This document shows, one piece after another, positions 2,804 to 33,009 of a DNA stretch of 43,260 nucleotides. Each line of letters starts with the position of its first letter. The stretch's first letter is position 1. Under the pieces are notes generated by a model. The model worked only from the letters and a program-made list of their open reading frames with translations, was not told the origin of the DNA and did not search any database. The DNA is from a virus. Where the stretch lies: the IMG/VR virus record IMGVR_UViG_3300034374_003686, positions 1 through 43,260 of that record; one strand, 5' to 3'. The position numbers were made by a program, and so were the translations under genes.

Positions 2804-2820
2804 AGTTAAGTCCTTTCTAG

Positions 2821-3045
2821 TTACTTGGGACACCGGGCTGCGCCGTAGCCGCGATACGACCGGCTGCCGACCATGCCACCCTTCGCTTTCATCACGACTT
2901 CCCGGGCTTTTGCTTTTTGATCTTCAGAAGCATCTTTAAGTACCTGCTTCGCATATTCTACGTCGTCCGGGTTCTCTTTCTCTTTAGACGTGCTGATGCC
3001 CATGGCTTCATAGACATCTGCCTGACTCCTTTTCTTACCAGCCAT
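2821..3045 (-). CDS. Small virion-block protein with C-terminal Gly-Gly motif (74 aa)
   Basis: A 74-residue highly charged protein starting two bases after the stop of the upstream DUF6496-like gene. Residues 1-50 are Lys/Glu/Asp-rich and probably helical. Residues 53-62 read KAKGGMVGSR and lead into a Tyr/Gly/Arg-rich end (SYRGYGAAR). Short C-terminal GG-M/V-x-R sequences of this type recur in small proteins of marine phages, and related motifs appear in five other proteins of this window. No enzymatic motif is seen; a structural or packaged protein is the likeliest role given the neighbourhood. Confidence 0.7.
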   Translation of the reverse strand: MAGKKRSQADVYEAMGISTSKEKENPDDVEYAKQVLKDASEDQKAKAREVVMKAKGGMVGSRSYRGYGAARCPK

Positions 3046-3213
3046 CTACTTCTTCCTCTTCTTGGCTTTGCTGATCCCTGCTTCCGACAGGGCAATAGCA
3101 ACAGCCTGTTTAGGGTTCTTCACCTTGGTCCCGGAGGACGATTTCAGGGTACCTTCTTTGAACTCGCCCATGACCTTGCGGACTTTGCGGGACTGCTTCT
3201 TTGTCTGCGGCAT
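3046..3213 (-). CDS. DUF6496-like small basic protein (55 aa)
   Basis: Starts at ATG 3213 and ends at TAG 3048-3046, immediately followed by the next gene's ATG. The 55-residue product is very basic (KKQSRKVRKVMGEFKEG at the N-terminus, KAKKRKK at the C-terminus) with a central NPKQAVAIALSEAG helix. The combination of RKVMxEFKxGxL, a short Ser/Gly loop and NPKQAxAIALSEA is characteristic of the DUF6496 family, found in many phages and bacteria with unknown function. It lies between the 381-aa protein and the 74-aa protein and is probably translated with them. Confidence 0.75.
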   Translation of the reverse strand: MPQTKKQSRKVRKVMGEFKEGTLKSSSGTKVKNPKQAVAIALSEAGISKAKKRKK

Positions 3214-3216
3214 GGG

Positions 3217-4362
3217 TTAGACCATTCGGTTGTAGTTATTAAGAATCTTATCACGCATGGTTCCACCGCCCATGCGACGAATAGGACCTCCGGCGTTATA
3301 AATACCCCTGCCGGGGAATCCACTACGAAAATCTTCGGCAGCCTTCATGGTTTTTTGCGCCGAAGAAGGCAAAGCAGTAGAAGGCATAGAAAGACCGGGA
3401 CGAGGAGCCGGTGGTGTTACGCCCGGCGCAGCACGGAAAAACTCTCGCATTTCTTTTACCACTGCTGCTGCAATTTCCGGACTACTTTGTTCAGCACTTC
3501 TAAGAGCCTGTGCTGCCTCTGCCGGAGTCCGGCTGTTGCCAATAATTCGGCCAATAAGAGGCATACGTTTCATCATATTCATCGTTCCAACTGCTGCACT
3601 GCCAACCGGTATGAGATTTAGAAGAATTTCACTTGCTGTGCCAATTGCGCCTTCCTTAAATCCTTCTGCCATATAATTAGCAAGTTGGGGGTCTTCGGCC
3701 CCAATCATATTAATAAGAGTATTGAGGTCATCATTCTGGCCTGTATTCAGACCCATTCCAGCGGCAATATTTTGAGCCGTCTCTTGGGAAATGCTTCCTC
3801 CCACACCACCAAGACGAGGTCTCTGACGAACTCGTCTTTGCACCAAGTCCGCCGCAGACATATTTTTTTCTGCCTGTTCTTCTTCATAACGCTTTCGTTG
3901 GTTTGCAATATCGCTCTGAACTCCGCGCCGGATCGAACCAAGTTCTTCAAGCGTTAGAATATCTTCTCTATTAAGCGATGGCAACGGAGAAACCTGAACT
4001 GGAGGTTCAGGTTTAGGCACCGGATTAGGAAGCTCTGTCCGGCGAATTTCATCCGACTTCATCGGGGGTTGAGGCTCTTCAGCCGGGGTCAGATAATACT
4101 TGGCAAGTTCGGTAGCCCGGGCATTCATAATACCGGGCTGGAACATCATAGCTTCCTCGACATTAGAGTAGCCCATACTCATTGCCTCGTTCTGGAGGAT
4201 CGACCGGGCAATAGGGGGCAGACTTTCGATAAAATCTAGTGAACGACGCTCCTCTCGGGCTGAGTCTCGGGCTGCCGTACCAATATCCTGTAATACACCT
4301 GAGAGACCGGAAGAGTCAGCGGCCCCACCAAGGGCTGAGAGAATATCGTCAAGAATTGCCAT
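3217..4362 (-). CDS. Putative virion protein, unknown function (381 aa)
   Basis: ATG 4362 is preceded by AGGGGAT. The protein has a Gly/Ala/Ser-rich start, a Pro/Glu-rich linker (residues about 93-135), a coiled segment with RKRYEEEQAEKN, a hydrophobic stretch around residues 245-275 (GTASEILLNLIPVGSAAVGTM), and a C-terminus with YNAGGPIRRM at about 355-364. The base composition is visibly more AT-rich than the portal gene next to it. Hydrophobic Ala/Gly segments combined with disordered linkers are common in phage ejection and internal head proteins. It sits directly downstream of portal. No family is recognised, so the virion role is inferred from position and the Gly-Gly motif shared with other virion-block proteins. 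Confidence 0.65.
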   Translation of the reverse strand: MAILDDILSALGGAADSSGLSGVLQDIGTAARDSAREERRSLDFIESLPPIARSILQNEAMSMGYSNVEEAMMFQPGIMNARATELAKYYLTPAEEPQPPMKSDEIRRTELPNPVPKPEPPVQVSPLPSLNREDILTLEELGSIRRGVQSDIANQRKRYEEEQAEKNMSAADLVQRRVRQRPRLGGVGGSISQETAQNIAAGMGLNTGQNDDLNTLINMIGAEDPQLANYMAEGFKEGAIGTASEILLNLIPVGSAAVGTMNMMKRMPLIGRIIGNSRTPAEAAQALRSAEQSSPEIAAAVVKEMREFFRAAPGVTPPAPRPGLSMPSTALPSSAQKTMKAAEDFRSGFPGRGIYNAGGPIRRMGGGTMRDKILNNYNRMV

Positions 4363-4402: not shown

Positions 4403-6835
4403 TTACAACAAACCCAAGTCTGACGCTTGGGCCAGTCTATCAAGTTGTTTATCAGCCCGGGCTGCTGCCCTATCTTTGTCAGCCTGATCTATCTCTGTCG
4501 ATATTTTGACCCCATCTCGGACTGCATCTGCTGTCTGTTTTTCATCTTGCAGATCAAGCTGACGATTTTTCAGGGCAAGTCCGGCAGCGTCGGCAATCGA
4601 CTTCAGACCGATCCGTTCCTTCTCCAGTTCTAGTTTCTGACGCTCAAGATCAAGAAGCTGCTGTTCCGGGGACGCTGCCTGACCCATCTGCTGGTTCGCG
4701 TTTGCTACCTGCTGGGCAGCCATTGCCAGAATCTGATCCATGGCGTAAGACGCCCCCGCACCCTGCTGGGCCATCATCGCAGCCTGTTCCGGGGGCAGTT
4801 GGGCCATCTGCTGCTGGACGACACCCTGAATCTGTTCCTGATATCCGAGCATCATATGCTCACGGATGTTCGCCTGAATAGCCGGGGCAAATGGCTTGAG
4901 TGCTTCTGATGCACCACCCATCGGGTCCGACAAGAAAGCAGTCTTGACGGCGATGTGGGCCTGATGATCCTGACCGGGGAAGGCAGAGATAGGCATTCCA
5001 CGGGTCACCATCATCAGGTCTGTCATCGGGTCTTGCGGTTGTGCTTCCTGCGGCTTGGGGAGAATCTGGTCGATGTTCGGGAAGTCTGCCGCTTCGAGGA
5101 CCTGACGGACCAGTTCCGGGGTGTTGAACGTCCCCGGGGGAGTCTGGGCTGCCATCTGGAGGGCAAGACTTGCCAGAGACAGGCGGTGTGCCCGGGAGGG
5201 GATATTCGGGTCAGAGACCGGGAGAACGTCCACCCTCCCGTCGAAATCCTGCTGGAAGACGGTCATGTCGCCCTCGGGGGTCGCGTACGGGTAACCGTCG
5301 AGTGGGACAAAGTCTGCGTTGATCCGGGCCAGAATCTTGAACTGTTGACGCTGGGCATGGTGGAGACGCTTGTGGACGGCGGAGAAGAACTTGGCCGATG
5401 CTTCGAGGAGGGCCATTGTCGTCCCAACAGGGCCGTAGTTGTTCGCGTCGGAGACAATCTGGTCGGTCTGGTCGGCAAACTTCTCGGCAGCCCCGGTGAC
5501 GAAGCCGAGAAGCTGGAACAGGGTCTGGGACGGTTCCTTGTACGGGAGGTTCACGATGGCCTTGTTCAGGTCCATCCCGAGAGCCTCGACCTCCTTGAAC
5601 TCGCCGGGGCTGATCGGGTCCGAGTCGCCGACAACACGGACGCCTTTCGCCTTAAATCCGCCGGGGAGGTTGGCGAACTGACCGGCATCGACAAGTGCCC
5701 TCATCGCCGACGTTGCCGTCATGGTCAGGTTACCGATAAGCTGGATCAGGCCGAGACCGTAGAAGCCGAAGCCGGGGACGAACTTGTAGTGGGTGAAGTG
5801 GATCATCTTCTCGGCGGCGGGGTCGTCTTCCCGGTAGTTTCGGCGGATCGACAGGACTTGCCGGGAATCAGCCTCGACGGTGATGATGTACGGGAGTGCC
5901 GCCTCGTCATCATCAAGTTTCAGGATTACATGCTGTTCTAGCAGGGTGTACTCCGGGTCTTCACCACCGTCTGAGAAACCAAGAATTTCATCTACCTTCC
6001 CGGCCAGTTCCGAATCCTTCCGCCCGGTAGGGTCGGGGAGGTCGGCAACGTCCCGGTACATTCCGGCCCTGATGTCGGCCTGAAGGTCAGCCTTCGACTT
6101 GTAGATGACATGGGTGTACCGCCCGGCCCGTCGAAGGTCCGTGGCGGCGTAGTTGACGTAGAACTGGTCCATCGGGATGTGTTCGGCGACAGGACGGCCC
6201 ACGGTCCCGTCGTAGTACATCTTCATGATCGCCGAGCCGACAATCGGGAGATGGAAGAGCATCCGCTCCATCTCGTCGAAATACTCGGGCATCATCTCCG
6301 TCAGTTCGTAGTTCATAAACCGGCGGACACGGTTCGACTGCTGGACGATGTTCGAATCTGGGTCACCGATGATCTGCGTCCGGACAGGACCGTCAGCCGG
6401 GAGAAGTTCCTGAGATGCCTTCGACTGGAACTTGACAGCCGACTCGATGATCAGCGGGTGTGTCGCCGCACACGATCCGCTGAATGCCGTCCCTGTTTCC
6501 TCGAACCGGAGGCCGAGAAGGTCCAGACCACGGGTCAGCGTCTCGTCCCAGTCCGCCCTGCTTTCCCGGTCAGCCTCAAAGCCGTCGATGACACGACGGG
6601 CGACAGTCTCCAGTTCATCCTCCCCGATGTATTCGGCAAGGTTGGCGAAGTGGGGGATGGGGACATCGACTTCGAGTTCCATGTCTGCCGACAGGCTGTC
6701 GATGAACATCTGGTCCTCGGGGGACAGGCCCACACCCCCCATCTCGCCAAAGTCAAACTCTATTGCCGACTCGCCGCCATCGACATCAAATTCTACCCCC
6801 GGGGGGAGCATGTTCTGGTTTTCAATGAGTGACAT
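4403..6835 (-). CDS. Portal protein
   Basis: An 810-residue protein, within the large size range of P22/HMO-2011-type portals, which form the dodecameric DNA channel at one capsid vertex. Residues 1-60 are acidic; about 75-600 form the portal core, with segments such as SCAATHPLIIESAVKFQSKA, a dimer-like helix region and PGFGFYGLGLIQLIGNLT. The C-terminal 200 residues are Gln/Ala-rich helices (QQQMAQLPPEQAAMMAQQ) ending in a long coiled coil, matching the barrel helix of large podovirus portals. It follows the ART-methyltransferase gene with a shared ATG/stop junction and lies close to terminase, the usual head-packaging arrangement. Confidence is high from length, order and overall character. 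Confidence 0.88.
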   Translation of the reverse strand: MSLIENQNMLPPGVEFDVDGGESAIEFDFGEMGGVGLSPEDQMFIDSLSADMELEVDVPIPHFANLAEYIGEDELETVARRVIDGFEADRESRADWDETLTRGLDLLGLRFEETGTAFSGSCAATHPLIIESAVKFQSKASQELLPADGPVRTQIIGDPDSNIVQQSNRVRRFMNYELTEMMPEYFDEMERMLFHLPIVGSAIMKMYYDGTVGRPVAEHIPMDQFYVNYAATDLRRAGRYTHVIYKSKADLQADIRAGMYRDVADLPDPTGRKDSELAGKVDEILGFSDGGEDPEYTLLEQHVILKLDDDEAALPYIITVEADSRQVLSIRRNYREDDPAAEKMIHFTHYKFVPGFGFYGLGLIQLIGNLTMTATSAMRALVDAGQFANLPGGFKAKGVRVVGDSDPISPGEFKEVEALGMDLNKAIVNLPYKEPSQTLFQLLGFVTGAAEKFADQTDQIVSDANNYGPVGTTMALLEASAKFFSAVHKRLHHAQRQQFKILARINADFVPLDGYPYATPEGDMTVFQQDFDGRVDVLPVSDPNIPSRAHRLSLASLALQMAAQTPPGTFNTPELVRQVLEAADFPNIDQILPKPQEAQPQDPMTDLMMVTRGMPISAFPGQDHQAHIAVKTAFLSDPMGGASEALKPFAPAIQANIREHMMLGYQEQIQGVVQQQMAQLPPEQAAMMAQQGAGASYAMDQILAMAAQQVANANQQMGQAASPEQQLLDLERQKLELEKERIGLKSIADAAGLALKNRQLDLQDEKQTADAVRDGVKISTEIDQADKDRAAARADKQLDRLAQASDLGLL

Positions 6836-8103
6836 CAGATAGTCCTTGGTTGACGGCGGTAGGGGTCACGACTGACGACAGAGCCACCACGACGGTATTG
6901 TACTGGTTTGGTGGCGATAATAACATTGCCTTTTCTGCGGACGTTGTCAGGTCCAAATATTTCTTCAACTTCACCAATGTAGTCGGCTGTCTTTTTGTTG
7001 TTCTGAAATCCTTTGCTTGTCACCTTGCCTACGCCTGTACCGGCTCCTTCGTAAATTTGAAAATACGCTATACCACCCGGCTTAATATTCGTCATGGCCT
7101 GTCGGATGACATCAGTCCGGGCTTCTGGCTCTGCAATCACATTCAGAACATTAGCGGCTGTGGCTGTGTCGGCTGCTTCTGTCCGCATCCTGTCCATAAC
7201 AGCGGCATTATGTTCCGGGGAACGATTGTACGGATCGTAGACGAAGTTTTCAACACCACGTTCATCTGCCAGATACTTGGTACCTTCATCAAATCTTCCG
7301 CCACCAATATCAAAATTTGTACCGCCCTCCGGAAAGTCGATGTCTTGTTTCTTAAAGAGGGCAGGTACCTGACGAAGAGATGTGTCTGCGGAGGAGATAG
7401 CTTGTTTAGGTGCATCTAATGTCATCTGCTCTTTATTAAAAACTGCGTATACATTGTTTTTATATCGTTCGCCAATCCCTTCGTATACATTTTCTGCTAT
7501 TACTGAATCGAATCCTTCGGCTTTTGCCTTATTGATTACTTTTTGTTGATATGAAGAGTCGTCAATAAATTTTTGTGCCTCGTCACCTTTCAATGTAAAT
7601 GGATTCTTAATGTCTGTATAAATCTCTGTTACACTGCCGGGTTCAATTTCATTCCCAAAATCATCATAAAATTTTGGTTCCCCGTATTCACGCGGAAGCG
7701 TAAAAGTATATGCAACATCTTCGTTATCTGTTAAAAATGATGCACTTTTAGTTTCAACTGCTTTATTTGGGTCTGGAAGAATTTGGCCGCTAGTCGGTGA
7801 CCCGTGATATAATTTTTTAATTACACCGGCTCCAATGCCCGGTAGAGCCATTGCAAGGCCCGACAATCCGGCTTGGCCGTAGTTTCCTTCCTGCACGTCC
7901 TTAGTCATATGGGCAATATCTAGTCCTTCCCCAATTCCGGGAAGCATCGATAATAGCATTTCGGCTTGTTCAGTTTTGGATGCCGGGGTGTAGTTAGCAT
8001 ACAGACGTTCTTTCATCGGCATACGAAGACGTTCAGGCGCTTGATACTCAGTCCCGTAATCACGGATCAATTGATTTAGGGCAAGGATGTCGTCATCGGC
8101 CAT
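6835..8103 (-). CDS. ADP-ribosyltransferase-like/methyltransferase fusion protein
   Basis: A 422-residue two-domain protein. Residues 80-98 are a hydrophobic Gly/Ala/Leu segment. From about 97 to 225 the sequence resembles phage ART-PolyVal domains: LYHG (99-101), FLTDNEDVAYTFT (123-135), YTDIKNPFTLKG (162-173), KAEGFDSVIAE and a final VYAVFNKEQ. Residues about 260-395 look like a class I SAM methyltransferase: FDIGGGRFD (264-272), YDPYNRS (289-295), NVLNV (318-322), KPGG (341-344). The C-terminus carries YRRGGSVVSR (403-412). The ART half is conspicuously AT-rich. It lies between large terminase and portal, so it may be packaged and injected as a host-modifying enzyme. Domain calls are from recognisable motifs; substrates are unknown. 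Confidence 0.72.
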   Translation of the reverse strand: MADDDILALNQLIRDYGTEYQAPERLRMPMKERLYANYTPASKTEQAEMLLSMLPGIGEGLDIAHMTKDVQEGNYGQAGLSGLAMALPGIGAGVIKKLYHGSPTSGQILPDPNKAVETKSASFLTDNEDVAYTFTLPREYGEPKFYDDFGNEIEPGSVTEIYTDIKNPFTLKGDEAQKFIDDSSYQQKVINKAKAEGFDSVIAENVYEGIGERYKNNVYAVFNKEQMTLDAPKQAISSADTSLRQVPALFKKQDIDFPEGGTNFDIGGGRFDEGTKYLADERGVENFVYDPYNRSPEHNAAVMDRMRTEAADTATAANVLNVIAEPEARTDVIRQAMTNIKPGGIAYFQIYEGAGTGVGKVTSKGFQNNKKTADYIGEVEEIFGPDNVRRKGNVIIATKPVQYRRGGSVVSRDPYRRQPRTI

Positions 8104-8135: not shown

Positions 8136-9704
8136 TTATATGCGTCTGCCGGGGAGTACCCAATAAGAACCACGGGTCTTCTGTCGGCGGACTGGTTCGT
8201 CGTCCAGTTCAGGGTCGTCGGGGTGTTCTATCCGCCACGAATCACGGACGTACAGGATTGCCATGGTCATGGCGTCCACCATGTCGTCGTGACGACCACC
8301 GGGGAATCTGAGTGCTTGGTTCAGCAGATCGTCGGCCCAGTTTCTTCCTGCCGGTATCCAGATTCGGCCTGACTCCATGAACGGGGTGGATGCGTTGACC
8401 CGGGCTACCTTGTCCCGGTCAGGCATGTATTCCATGATCGGGAGACCGGCCCGGCGCAGGTCTTGGATCAAGGATTGTCCGGACGCCTTCTTCTCGATAA
8501 GCACAAGGTCGGGCCGGTGGTGGTCGTACTCTGCCTGTGCTAACGATCTGAGTTCCGGGTACTCCCACCGGCCATGCTCGTTCCCGAGGAGGATCAGGTT
8601 GGCGACAACCCTCTCCACCCCGGCTGAGTCTGTCGTTGCCCGGTGGAAGATGCCCCATGTCTGGAGGACTGACTCGTCGGCTGTCGATTTGGTCGAGAAA
8701 GCCGTGTCCATCGTCTGGAGGATGAACTCACAGTTCGGGGGTTCAGGGTCTGTCCATGGGGACAGATAGCCCATCTTGATGATACCGCCCTCGTCCGGGG
8801 TCGGGTTCTGCATGTACAGCGACTGCCAGTACTTGGCCCCGTTATTAGACCTGATCTCAGCCTCGTCCTGCCGGAGGAGTTCGTCAGTCTTCCATTCGGG
8901 GAAGTACGACGAGCCGACAGGGAGGCCGAGAAGTTCCGACGACTCCTCGTCTACCCATGCCGGAATCTTGATGACCTTCCACGGGGTCGTGTCAGGGTTG
9001 TCCTCGGCCCCTTGGTTACGGAGGAGCCACCCGCAGAGGTCATCGTCGTGGTACCGGGTGTTGATGATGACGATAGACCCGCCGGGCATGAGTCGGGTGC
9101 GGAGACCTGACGGGTACCAGTTCTTGATATAGGCCCTCCCGGCGTCCGAGAATGCGTCTGCCTCCGACATCGCATCGTCGATGATGGCTACGTGTGCACC
9201 CCGACCCGCAATCTGGGAGTTAACACCGGCTGCGAAGTACGATCCGCCCTTGTTCGTCTTCCATTTACCGGCTGCCTTCGCATCCTTCCGGAGACGGACC
9301 CCCTCGAATACCTCCTCGAAGACAGGGTGGGCGACAAGATCACGGACTGAACGGCCAAAGTCCGAGGATAGCTGTTCGTTATGACTGATAGTCAGGATTT
9401 CATGGGCTGGTTGTCGGCCCATGTACCACGAGGGGAACAGACGGCTGCTGATCAGGGACTTGGAGGACCGGGGAGGGAGGAAAATCATGATGCGCTGACC
9501 ACCCTCGTCCACGCACCGCTGTAGTTCCCGGCAGATTATGTCGATATGACGACCCCACTTGAAATCAGGGACGATGGTGGGGGCCATCAGACGGACATAT
9601 GCGGCGAAATCGTCCCGGGCCGACAACATTGCCCGGGCATGGAGCAGGGCTAGGTAGCTTTCCCGGGACTGCACGTCGGGGGAGATTTGAGTAATATCAG
9701 TCAC
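8136..9704 (-). CDS. terL: Terminase large subunit
   Basis: A 522-residue ATPase-nuclease that translocates phage DNA into the prohead through the portal. A degenerate Walker A (LPPRSSKS, residues 76-83) and Walker B (HVAIIDDAM, 171-179) mark the ATPase half; TRYHDDDLCGWL corresponds to the motif III region. The nuclease half begins near MDTAFSTKST and includes a late acidic motif (GRHDDMVDAM) consistent with the RNase H-like fold. The frame starts with GTG at 9704 and has only a weak upstream ribosome-binding site. Small terminase lies just upstream, and the ART/methyltransferase gene and portal follow. The length is normal for the family. Confidence 0.92.
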   Translation of the reverse strand: MTDITQISPDVQSRESYLALLHARAMLSARDDFAAYVRLMAPTIVPDFKWGRHIDIICRELQRCVDEGGQRIMIFLPPRSSKSLISSRLFPSWYMGRQPAHEILTISHNEQLSSDFGRSVRDLVAHPVFEEVFEGVRLRKDAKAAGKWKTNKGGSYFAAGVNSQIAGRGAHVAIIDDAMSEADAFSDAGRAYIKNWYPSGLRTRLMPGGSIVIINTRYHDDDLCGWLLRNQGAEDNPDTTPWKVIKIPAWVDEESSELLGLPVGSSYFPEWKTDELLRQDEAEIRSNNGAKYWQSLYMQNPTPDEGGIIKMGYLSPWTDPEPPNCEFILQTMDTAFSTKSTADESVLQTWGIFHRATTDSAGVERVVANLILLGNEHGRWEYPELRSLAQAEYDHHRPDLVLIEKKASGQSLIQDLRRAGLPIMEYMPDRDKVARVNASTPFMESGRIWIPAGRNWADDLLNQALRFPGGRHDDMVDAMTMAILYVRDSWRIEHPDDPELDDEPVRRQKTRGSYWVLPGRRI

Positions 9705-29937: not shown

Positions 29938-30717
29938 ATGAAGCCAACCATCCCTATCTTTGTCGGGTACGACGCATCAACTGCCGAGGCATTCCTTGCC
30001 TGTGCCGGGTCCATCACTGAGAACACCAAGGACTCGGCCCCGGTAATTCACCCGCTCCAGCACCGCAATCTCCGTCGTGACGGCCTGTTCTATCGCCAGT
30101 GGGACATCGACGAGGTCGGCCAGTACTGGGACAAGGAAGACGGCAGACCGTTCTCGACAGAGTTCTCCTTCTCCCGGTTCTGCACGGTGGACTGGGCCAG
30201 ACGGATGGGTTACACCGGGTGGGTCATGTTCTGTGACTCGGACTTTATCTTTCTGTCGGACTTGACGAAGCTGTTCGACTACGCTAGAAAGTATCCCGAC
30301 AAGGCCCTGCTCACCGTCCAGTTCGACTGGCAACCTGCCGAGGAGATGAAGATGGACGGGCGTATCCAGTCCCAGTACAACAGGAAACTCTGGTCGTCCC
30401 TGATGATGTTCAACATGGATCATCCTGCTAACGCCGGGCTGACGACACAGCTTGTCAACACGGCATCAGGGTCTGATCTGCACCGCTTCTGTTGGTTGTC
30501 AGACGATGACATCGGGGAACTACCCGGCGGTTGGAACTGGATCGAGGGTATCAGCCCAGACCACCAGACCCCGTTTGCTGTTCATCATAGCCACGGTCTC
30601 CCCATCCACCCGGGATATGAGACTTCCCGGTACGCAGAAGAGTGGGACGGTTATCTCCGGCGTCATCTGCGTCGCCTATCATCCCGGAAGAAATTGCCTG
30701 AAGGAATCCTCTCATGA
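29938..30717 (+). CDS. Glycosyltransferase (GT8-like, DSD motif)
   Basis: 259 residues; a strong GGTGGAGG precedes ATG 29938. The GT-A fold features are a nucleotide-sugar-binding start (IPIFVGYDAS), FSFSRFCTVDWARRMG, then VMFCDSDFIFLSDLTKLF with DSD as the metal-binding D-x-D equivalent, and a late HSHGLPIHPGYE segment. It would transfer a sugar from a nucleotide donor to an unknown acceptor. Together with the fused protein next to it and the methyltransferases it could decorate virion, DNA or host glycans. The next gene starts inside its stop. Confidence 0.75.
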   Translation: MKPTIPIFVGYDASTAEAFLACAGSITENTKDSAPVIHPLQHRNLRRDGLFYRQWDIDEVGQYWDKEDGRPFSTEFSFSRFCTVDWARRMGYTGWVMFCDSDFIFLSDLTKLFDYARKYPDKALLTVQFDWQPAEEMKMDGRIQSQYNRKLWSSLMMFNMDHPANAGLTTQLVNTASGSDLHRFCWLSDDDIGELPGGWNWIEGISPDHQTPFAVHHSHGLPIHPGYETSRYAEEWDGYLRRHLRRLSSRKKLPEGILS

Positions 30718-32330
30718 GAAAGTATGTAGCCGTCACGTCGATGAACAAGGCAGGGTACGATCTGTACGGCAGACAGATGCTGGAGTCTGTCGCCCGTCAC
30801 TGGTCCCCGGAGATTGACTTCTACGTCTGGTACCACGACTGGGACATCCTGTCGGAGCCTGACCTGCCCGGGACAGACGTCCTAAACTTCCGCAGCCTGA
30901 ACAAGGTAGGCGATCTGCTGATCTTCCGTGAACGGATGGCCGACCATAAGCCTGACAACTGGCGGATGGATGTCGTCCGCTTCTGTCACAAGGTCTATGC
31001 GATCTCCGAGACTGCCCGTCAGCTTGTCTCTGACATCGACGACGAGACGGACTATCAGCTTCTCTGGCTGGACGCTGACACGATCACAAAGGAGGACGTC
31101 GATCCGGCGTGGCTTGACAGTCTGTTAGGTTCTGCCGACATCTCCCTTCTTGAACGGAGGGCGGCTGATTACGCCGAGACATCGTTCATGCGGTTCGACC
31201 TTCACCACAGTCGGTCGGCAGCGTTCGACGTTCTGGAGGATGTCAGGGCTGCGTACGACACGCTGGAAGTCCGTGGTTACCGTGAATGGCACGACGGCTT
31301 CGTCTTCCAGCGGATCATCAATCTGCATGTCAACCACACGCTGGAGGTGGAGAATCTGTCGCCGGACGCCAATACCCTTGATGCGTTCCACACCAGCCGT
31401 CTTGCCGAGCGGATAGAGCATTTCAAGGGGGCAAAGAAGGAGGCACCCCGGGAAATCCCGATCATGGTGCAGCCGAAGGATTCTGTCCCTGACGAATACA
31501 TCAGGGATAACATCATTGCGAACAACGAACTCATCGGCATGTGGGTAAGCCGGTGCAGACCACACGCACTCCCCGGCATCATCCTGTCTGCCGGACCGTC
31601 GCTGAACACGGAACAGATTCGTCACGACTATTACTACGGGAAGAAGGTGACGGGGACCAAGCTGCTCTGTGTCAAGCACAGTCTGCCCCGCCTGATGGAG
31701 GCAGGGATTGTCCCGTGGGGATGTACCGTCCTCGACCCTCGCCCGGTGGACGGTATCTCGACGCACGGTGTTCTCCGGAAGGACCTGTTCCGGGACATCG
31801 ACCCACGGACCACGTTCTTTGTCGCCTCCATGACGGACCCGTCAGTCACCCGTCTGCTGCTCGACCGGGGTGCAACGGTTGTCGGCTTCCACGCATACTC
31901 TCAGGCCATTCAGCGGGTCGCCAACGATCCTGCTTACCCGCTCTCCCCCGACACCGTGTACATCACCGGGGGTACGTGTGCTGCCACCCGATCTATCGGG
32001 CTGCTCCATACTCTCGGGTTCCGTGACATCACCCTTGCCGGATTCGACGGGTCTGTCCCTGAACCTGCGGACTCGGAGAAGGAGGACACAATCGTCAGCC
32101 ACGACGGGAAGGAGCGGGAGAAATACCTGAAGGTGAAGATTAACGGGAAGGAGTTCTGGACGACCGGGGAACTTCTTGCCTTCGCGCAGGACTGTGAGCG
32201 GATGTTCGACAAGGTGGACATGGACACTGAACTCTCCTTCATCGGGGAGGGTACGCTCTGTGCCGAGACGTGGGTGAACAGGAAGATTCGTCCTCTGTCC
32301 AACCTTCAGGATATTGTCAATGGGTATTGA
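30714..32330 (+). CDS. Glycosyltransferase-like / MptE-like fusion protein
   Basis: 538 residues in two parts. Residues 1 to about 250 look like a GT-A glycosyltransferase: YVAVTSMNKAGYDLYGRQM, then LLWLDADTITKEDVD with a DAD metal-binding motif. Residues about 280-538 resemble MptE/DUF115 (6-hydroxymethylpterin pyrophosphokinase MptE-like, related to flagellin-modifying MAF proteins): GIILSAGPSLNTEQIR, KLLCVKHSLPRLMEAGIVPWG, VYITGGTCAATRSIGLL and GFRDITLAGFDGSV. Such domains transfer sugar or nucleotide-linked groups, so the fusion could build a glycan in one protein. ATG 30714 overlaps the preceding gene. The substrate is unknown. Confidence 0.72.
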   Translation: MRKYVAVTSMNKAGYDLYGRQMLESVARHWSPEIDFYVWYHDWDILSEPDLPGTDVLNFRSLNKVGDLLIFRERMADHKPDNWRMDVVRFCHKVYAISETARQLVSDIDDETDYQLLWLDADTITKEDVDPAWLDSLLGSADISLLERRAADYAETSFMRFDLHHSRSAAFDVLEDVRAAYDTLEVRGYREWHDGFVFQRIINLHVNHTLEVENLSPDANTLDAFHTSRLAERIEHFKGAKKEAPREIPIMVQPKDSVPDEYIRDNIIANNELIGMWVSRCRPHALPGIILSAGPSLNTEQIRHDYYYGKKVTGTKLLCVKHSLPRLMEAGIVPWGCTVLDPRPVDGISTHGVLRKDLFRDIDPRTTFFVASMTDPSVTRLLLDRGATVVGFHAYSQAIQRVANDPAYPLSPDTVYITGGTCAATRSIGLLHTLGFRDITLAGFDGSVPEPADSEKEDTIVSHDGKEREKYLKVKINGKEFWTTGELLAFAQDCERMFDKVDMDTELSFIGEGTLCAETWVNRKIRPLSNLQDIVNGY

Positions 32331-33009
32331 GACAGCCACGTACAAAGTTCTTCAGGGACTCCGGGGTCGGGTGTCCTCGATTCTCTGCCTCGGATACCCG
32401 GACCTTCTTGTCGATCCTGCCGAGATCAGGGGGACATACACGGAGCGTGATGATGCCGACAAAATCAGACAGTGGCACCGCTGGTCAGGACCAGTCTACG
32501 ACACAGAGGAAGTACTCCGAGACGAACTTGGACTACTGGAGATCGAGTTCGCAGATGTTGTGGCCCACCGAGGACCGGAGCGTCTGGTTGACCTCAATCA
32601 GTATGTCGAGTGGGGCAGGACCTATGATGTGGTTCTGGATGGCGGGACTGCTGAACACTGCTTCAATATTGGACAGGTCTTTGACAATATACATCGGGCT
32701 GTCGGCAAGTTTGTCATCCATGTTAATCCGCTGAACATGATTAACCATGGCTTCTGGAACGTCAGCCCGACTTCGTACCACGATTTCTACGACCAGAACG
32801 GATACATCATCATGTCTGCCGGGGTCATGTACGGACATCCCGATACGCGGTACTATGATAATCTGAACGAGAAGGCCATGGTCGGCAGGTTTCAGCCGCG
32901 CAAAGTCGTGGAGATGACTAACCTCTTCGTTGCCGAGAAGGTGCGGGGGGATACAGGTCCTACTGTCTGGCCTGTTCAGCACAAGTATAAGGGTATGATC
33001 CATGAGTGA
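32320..33009 (+). CDS. Class I methyltransferase-like protein
   Basis: 229 residues from ATG 32320, with CAGGA eight bases upstream (a TTG at 32314 would add two residues). The sequence lacks a typical glycine-rich motif I but contains YDVVLDGGTAEHCFNIGQVF, then GKFVIHVNPLNMINHGFWNVSPTSYHDFYDQNG, a pattern found in SAM-dependent methyltransferase-like proteins of marine phages and bacteria. It overlaps the fusion gene by 11 bases and the next gene by eight, so the three sugar/methyl genes form one translational unit. Its activity and substrate are not established. Confidence 0.6.
   Translation: MGIETATYKVLQGLRGRVSSILCLGYPDLLVDPAEIRGTYTERDDADKIRQWHRWSGPVYDTEEVLRDELGLLEIEFADVVAHRGPERLVDLNQYVEWGRTYDVVLDGGTAEHCFNIGQVFDNIHRAVGKFVIHVNPLNMINHGFWNVSPTSYHDFYDQNGYIIMSAGVMYGHPDTRYYDNLNEKAMVGRFQPRKVVEMTNLFVAEKVRGDTGPTVWPVQHKYKGMIHE

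What the first reader, a model, noticed from the sequence alone, without database searches (positions are those of the whole stretch)
6835..8103. ADP-ribosyltransferase/methyltransferase fusion between terminase and portal, a candidate injected effector
The gene combines ART-like pieces (LYHG, FLTDNEDVAYTF, YTDIKNPF) with a class I SAM fold (FDIGGGRFD, KPGG). Packaging and portal genes are normally contiguous, so its place here and its own C-terminal Gly-Gly motif suggest the protein is packaged into the virion. ART plus MTase in one protein resembles described polyvalent proteins injected by phages and plasmids to counter host defence or modify transcription.
Basis: partly seen in the sequence, partly recalled or inferred. 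Interest (0 to 1): 0.78.

Follow-up and report, generated by a model that had tools for sequence, protein, structure and literature searches.

The report
Tagged, swappable phage cargo gene
An uncultured phage carries, in the gap between its DNA-packaging and portal genes, an ADP-ribosyltransferase/methyltransferase that is one payload of a swappable cassette: about 30 kinds of otherwise different phage proteins end in the same roughly 17-residue tag, which probably marks them for loading into the virus particle.

Summary
A 422-aa gene (8103..6835) lies between large terminase and portal. Residues 93-227 match Pfam ART-PolyVal above its curated cut-off, with candidate catalytic residues H100/Y132/D199. 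Residues 236-400 are a class I SAM methyltransferase (model confidence 95-98; the listed fold matches are methyltransferases), related to the phosphorothioation-associated family TIGR04096 and usually found inside giant phage polyvalent proteins.

The larger finding is the slot itself. In the window's clade the TerL-portal gap is empty (5 loci) or holds a cargo gene (13). Payloads are swapped (ART, acetyltransferase, ParB-like, unknown) and AT-rich, between N-terminal modules and one constant C-terminal tail, [KR]xGGS[VI][VI]ERxPYxxYxPKAI. All 13 occupied slots carry it. A DNA-pattern scan of IMG/VR found 106 matches; 105 sit exactly 17-18 residues before a stop, on proteins of about 30 architectures including a virion-type lysozyme. 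The same scan of 257 Gb of prokaryotic genomes found 15 matches, none showing the full tag.

Best reading: a polymorphic cargo system in which a C-terminal tag loads diverse effectors into the head for injection, resembling T4 internal proteins but with the signal at the other end. Packaging and injection are inferred, not shown.

The parts
6835..8103 (-). Cargo gene: N-terminal module + ART + SAM methyltransferase + C-terminal tag (422 aa)
   Evidence: ORF, translation; 99.8-100% identical copies in L002, L003, L004
7810..8103 (-). Constant N-terminal module, residues 1-98: MADDDI..LN.LI.DYG.EYQ.P, then a Gly/Ala-rich hydrophobic stretch (43-98)
   Evidence: 49-62% identical in L015, L017, L031, L032, L034, L035, which have unrelated payloads; predicted helices; a 73-residue match in a 1604-aa phage protein, L009
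7423..7827 (-). ART-PolyVal ADP-ribosyltransferase domain, residues 93-227; candidate triad H100, Y132, D199
   Evidence: PF18760 above its cut-off; triad columns in alignment A5; low-confidence model matches PARP/tankyrase ART domains
6904..7398 (-). Class I SAM methyltransferase domain, residues 236-400 (DIGGG, DPYN, NVLNVI, FQNNK motifs)
   Evidence: Alignment A3, pLDDT 95-98, Foldseek methyltransferase matches, TIGR04096 in 18 of 40 relatives
6838..6894 (-). C-terminal GG tag, residues 404-422: RRGGSVVSRDPYRRQPRTI
   Evidence: Same tail on 13 of 13 occupied slots of the clade and on about 30 architectures in IMG/VR
8136..9704 (-). Terminase large subunit, upstream border of the slot
   Evidence: Terminase_6C and Terminase_6N matches
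4403..6835 (-). Portal protein, downstream border of the slot
   Evidence: SU10_portal PF23899

Best explanation
The gene is one allele of a polymorphic cargo cassette. An N-terminal module with a hydrophobic segment and a short C-terminal GG tag stay constant while enzymatic payloads are exchanged between them by recombination. I infer that the tag is recognised during head assembly, probably by portal, scaffold or core proteins, so that a few copies are loaded into the head. The protein would then be ejected with the DNA, helped by the hydrophobic N-terminal segment. In this phage the payload would ADP-ribosylate a host protein (ART) and methylate DNA or another nucleic acid (methyltransferase related to TIGR04096), to blunt early defence or redirect the host. 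Shown by sequence: the domains, the slot, the payload swapping and the tag. Inferred: packaging, injection, activities and targets.
For: Slot variability: TerL-portal gaps range from about 0 to 3 kb with unrelated proteins. Swapping: the same N-terminal module occurs with different payloads and the same payload with different N-terminal modules. Payload GC is 42-46% against 52-60% in the flanks in all 10 loci measured; in the window ART 36%, methyltransferase 47%, tail 59%. Tag: 13 of 13 occupied slots in the clade; all 20 matches among 457 called ORFs are slot genes; 0 of 91,400 shuffled tails match. Pattern scan: 105 of 106 matches lie 17-18 residues before the stop, on about 30 architectures. 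Prokaryotic genome control: 15 matches in 257 Gb, none with the full signature. Selection acts on the protein: pS 0.51 against pN 0.14 within the tag, though pattern choice lowers pN. The tag also occurs on pairs of genes in one genome and after the portal. One tagged protein matches baseplate-hub/tail lysozyme (E=1.8e-13) and, weakly, internal virion lysozyme (E=0.0012) PHROGs. Payloads include ART-PolyVal, GNAT and ParB-like domains, kinds described in polyvalent proteins (PMC5512222). Tag density is 1-2 copies per record.
Against: No virion proteomics or packaging assay; all tagged phages found are uncultured. Four cultured relatives examined (HTVC027P, CRP-902, GB2A, DSL-LC04) lack this tag and a search of cultured phages with the tag found nothing. 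In the window's clade the last codons overlap the portal's ribosome-binding region, so part of the DNA conservation there has another cause. Many slot proteins of wider relatives lack the GG tag, so the slot does not require it. The ART model is low confidence (pLDDT 66). No target is known.
Confidence: 0.6

Rival explanations
1. The conserved tail is not a protein signal but a cis element: a homology arm for recombination and/or the translational coupling and ribosome-binding region of the portal gene.
For: In the window's clade the last ~20 nt before the portal start are nearly invariant DNA and contain a Shine-Dalgarno-like AAGG.
Against: Elsewhere the tagged gene ends 60-250 nt or more before the portal, or lies after it, and some genomes carry two tagged genes; codons vary synonymously while residues hold.
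Confidence: 0.12
2. The tagged proteins act inside the infected cell and are not packaged; the tag is an interaction, stability or processing signal for late expression.
For: No direct evidence of packaging; the slot proteins include enzymes that could work after synthesis.
Against: Position in the late packaging module, ART-PolyVal and other polyvalent-type domains, and a tag-bearing protein related to virion lysozymes.
Confidence: 0.17
3. The tagged proteins are structural head or connector components in which enzyme-like folds are used only for structure.
For: Location next to portal; Foldseek also lists, at rank 15, a chain of the cyanophage A4 pre-ejectosome against the ART model.
Against: The slot is empty in 5 of 18 window-clade loci and in 33 of 72 wider loci, so the gene is dispensable; domain families are swapped freely; the catalytic motifs are kept.
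Confidence: 0.08

Closest known systems
T4 internal proteins (IpI-III) with the N-terminal capsid targeting sequence
   Same: A diverse set of small injected anti-restriction proteins united only by a short packaging signal (PMC3012670, PMC12373910).
   Different: Signal at the N-terminus, T4-like myoviruses, inhibitors of restriction enzymes; here the conserved signal is C-terminal, the phages carry an SU10-type portal and the payloads are mostly enzyme-like. Packaging is shown for T4, not here.
MuF polymorphic toxins of temperate phages
   Same: Variable payloads on a constant part, encoded next to portal (PMC5576092).
   Different: The constant part is a MuF domain at the N-terminus, the gene lies immediately downstream of portal, and a small putative immunity ORF usually follows. 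Here there is no MuF match, the gene is upstream of portal and no immunity gene was seen.
Polyvalent proteins of phages and conjugative elements
   Same: ART-PolyVal, ParB-like, acetyltransferase and methyltransferase domains combined and predicted to be injected (PMC5512222).
   Different: Those are described as not following the constant-part/variable-toxin plan of secreted toxins; here both ends are constant and the middle varies.
DNA phosphorothioation-associated putative methyltransferase (TIGR04096)
   Same: 18 of 40 relatives of the methyltransferase domain match, best E=8.5e-11.
   Different: The window's own domain does not match at E up to 1; dnd genes were not looked for systematically; substrate unknown.
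Phage T4 Alt
   Same: Injected ADP-ribosyltransferase that acts at the start of infection (PMC5512222).
   Different: Alt belongs to the R-S-E clade; this domain has the H-Y-D arrangement.

Membership tests
ART-PolyVal (PF18760) | Profile match above the curated cut-off | tested here: met
   37.3 bits against 31.2, E=5.7e-9
ART-PolyVal (PF18760) | H (strand 1), Y (strand 2), D (strand 5) active site | tested here: met
   H100, Y132, D199 align with slot ARTs; D invariant in 7 sequences, H replaced by R in two of them
ART-PolyVal (PF18760) | ADP-ribosyltransferase fold | tested here: inconclusive
   Model pLDDT 66, pTM 0.59; top matches are PARP-type ART domains, best E=8e-4, TM-score about 0.44-0.49
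ART-PolyVal (PF18760) | NAD+-dependent ADP-ribosylation | not testable with these tools
   Needs an assay
Class I SAM methyltransferase | Rossmann-like fold with DxGxG motif I and acidic motif II | tested here: met
Class I SAM methyltransferase | Pfam methyltransferase profile above its cut-off | tested here: not met
   Methyltransf_23 at 18.6 bits (20.8 for the domain alone) against 27
Polyvalent proteins | Two or more domains of disparate activity in one polypeptide near late genes | tested here: met
   ART plus methyltransferase between TerL and portal
Polyvalent proteins | Injected with the DNA | not testable with these tools
   Virion proteomics needed
T4-type internal proteins | N-terminal capsid targeting sequence and packaging into the T4 core | not tested
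   No T4 CTS comparison was run; the conserved signal here is C-terminal
MuF polymorphic toxins | N-terminal MuF domain | tested here: not met
   No MuF family among Pfam matches up to E=1
TIGR04096 dnd_rel_methyl | NCBIfam match of the protein itself | tested here: not met
   No NCBIfam match up to E=1 for the window protein or its domain, although 18 relatives match

The most novel reading that the evidence does not exclude
A clade of uncultured phages uses a C-terminal capsid-targeting tag, at the opposite end from T4's signal, to load a recombining library of effectors encoded in a dedicated slot between terminase and portal. Any protein given the tag would be packaged and injected.
Probability: 0.5. 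Interest if true: 0.87.

Novelty: new variant of a known kind. Interest (0 to 1): 0.74.

Why it matters
If the tag is a loading signal, it would let injected phage effectors be found by sequence alone, as the T4 signal did for internal proteins. It would expose many uncharacterised early-acting enzymes in uncultured phages and give a short portable handle for putting chosen proteins into phage heads. It would also make the long-standing prediction that polyvalent-type proteins are injected directly testable.

Tried and rejected
tblastn of the 21-aa tag against cultured phages found nothing. Slot genes of four cultured relatives do not carry this tag. Single-sequence and ART-only scans recovered few or only identical copies and no ART relatives, and an iterative profile search from the ART domain did not spread, so the ART alignment is small and diverse. 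A full-length alignment that included ART rows placed them over the methyltransferase and was discarded. No PADLOC match. Considered and judged less likely: spurious ORF; homology arm or ribosome-binding artefact only. Two literature searches for a conserved C-terminal packaging motif or a terminase-portal cargo slot found nothing; most subscription papers are not held, so this does not prove novelty.

Full report
WHAT IS THERE. The interval 6835-8103 encodes a 422-aa protein on the minus strand. Large terminase (8136-9704) ends 32 nt before it and its stop codon overlaps the start of an SU10-type portal gene (TGATG). Residues 93-227 match ART-PolyVal above Pfam's cut-off; H100, Y132 and D199 fall in the H-Y-D positions described for this clade (PMC5512222). 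A low-confidence model of the ART region (pLDDT 66) has PARP/tankyrase ART domains as best structural matches. Residues 236-400 form a class I SAM methyltransferase: pLDDT 95-98, methyltransferases as best fold matches, and a 40-member family with invariant or near-invariant DxGxG, DP, NVLN and Q motifs. That family occurs alone (about 165-240 aa) and, more often, inside phage ORFs of 815 to over 3,500 aa; 18 of 40 members match TIGR04096.

THE SLOT. Thirty-nine loci with a related portal and 80 with a related TerL show that the TerL-portal gap is a variable slot. In the window's clade (portal at least 65% identical, 18 unique loci) it is empty in 5 and occupied in 13 (adding L028 and L029, whose tails are variant forms). 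The first ~98 residues of the window protein are kept at 49-62% in L015, L017, L031, L032, L034 and L035, whose payloads are unrelated. Payloads recur with different N-terminal modules, e.g. L016/L046, L015/L023 and L014/L031. Payload GC is 42-46% between flanks of 52-60% in all ten loci measured; in the window ART is 36% and methyltransferase 47%, while TerL, portal and the tail are all near 59%. These are the marks of a recombining cassette.

THE TAG. Every occupied slot of the clade ends in the same kind of tail, whatever the payload: RRGGSVVSRDPYRRQPRTI in the window, KKGGSVVERSNNYEPKAI or close variants elsewhere. This set was collected through portal and terminase, not through the tail, so it is not biased towards it. 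Among 457 called ORFs of at least 100 aa on these loci the tail occurs 20 times, only on slot genes (several are copies of one contig); shuffled tails gave 0 of 91,400. A pattern scan of IMG/VR for GG[S/T]V[V/I/M]xRNPY with third codon positions largely free gave 106 matches, 105 of them exactly 17-18 residues before a stop. Positions left free by the pattern are conserved too (E at 8, Y at 14, K/R at 17), and the final Ile is near-universal, which did not require it. The bodies fall into about 30 architectures by 70% mutual coverage, some of them fragments and many sharing single modules. The same pattern in 257 Gb of prokaryotic genomes gave 15 matches, none with the full signature. Of 77 non-redundant C-terminal cases, 57 lie between TerL and portal or beside the one that is on the contig, 5 after the portal and 15 on stretches without either. 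Several genomes have two tagged genes (L098, L180, L199, L225, and L070 with a variant tail). Within the tag, pS is 0.51 and pN 0.14; because part of the residues were fixed by the search, pN is biased low, but the synonymous variation is real and argues for protein-level constraint.

MECHANISM. Tagged payloads include ART-PolyVal, GNAT and ParB-like domains, and a lysozyme that matches baseplate-hub/tail lysozyme PHROGs (1.8e-13) and, weakly, an internal virion lysozyme family. A virion-type lysozyme, polyvalent-type enzymes, late-operon position and 1-2 tagged genes per record fit a low-copy cargo signal. I therefore propose that the tag loads these proteins into the head and that they are ejected with DNA. 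T4 sets the precedent: its internal proteins are diverse and share only a capsid targeting sequence (PMC3012670; PMC12373910). The hydrophobic N-terminal segment may help membrane passage; this is inference. For this payload I expect ADP-ribosylation of a host protein and methylation of nucleic acid, but neither activity nor target is shown.

COMPARISON. The cargo works like T4 internal proteins and MuF polymorphic toxins (constant addressing part, variable payload), and its domains are those of polyvalent proteins, but it fails the MuF membership test (no MuF match; upstream rather than downstream of portal) and its constant signal is at the C-terminus. I therefore file it as a new variant of a known kind.

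LIMITS. No tagged phage is cultured; four cultured relatives have slot genes or gaps without this tag (DSL-LC04 has a PcfJ-like protein in the slot). In the window's clade the last codons overlap the portal's ribosome-binding region, which explains part of the DNA conservation there but not the tag on genes placed elsewhere. Wider relatives often fill the slot with proteins lacking the GG tag. Literature coverage was partial.

Noticed in passing
L059, L065, L066, L077, L079, L123, L126 (TerL-portal slot proteins): Slot proteins without the GG tag often end in another short motif, roughly [FL]xxLLxxIYGP near the C-terminus; others (L058, L074, L080, L113, L119) end in a GhsxxEAxxMLG-like motif. 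These may be alternative cargo tags.
   Followed up: no
window 3217-4362 (-) and the homologous ORF after portal in L014, L028, L029, L031, L043: The ORF after portal diverges fast but keeps a different GG-containing C-terminus (GG..RDxIMxxYxRM); a small ORF next to it (about 2820-3075, -) also ends in a GG-rich tail (KGGMVGSRSYRGYGAARCPK).
   Followed up: partly
L240, L241, L242, L244: Polyvalent ORFs of 815-951 aa with the same methyltransferase end in AAGGSVIDDPLDVLSKLRR or a near copy, another GGSVI tail on a different polyvalent ORF.
   Followed up: no
L005:2-2670: The C-terminal part of the cargo is 99% identical to the window's while the portal is 89% and a later ORF 41% identical, a possible sign of recent recombination around the slot.
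   Followed up: partly
ART model m510367f8f7e6 against 9k3a_B: Rank 15 among PDB fold matches is a chain of the cyanophage A4 pre-ejectosome (E=3e-3), a possible ART-like domain in an ejection protein.
   Followed up: no
window 29938-33009 (+): ORFs that look by eye like sugar-transfer and SAM-binding proteins in the non-structural block; not searched.
   Followed up: no
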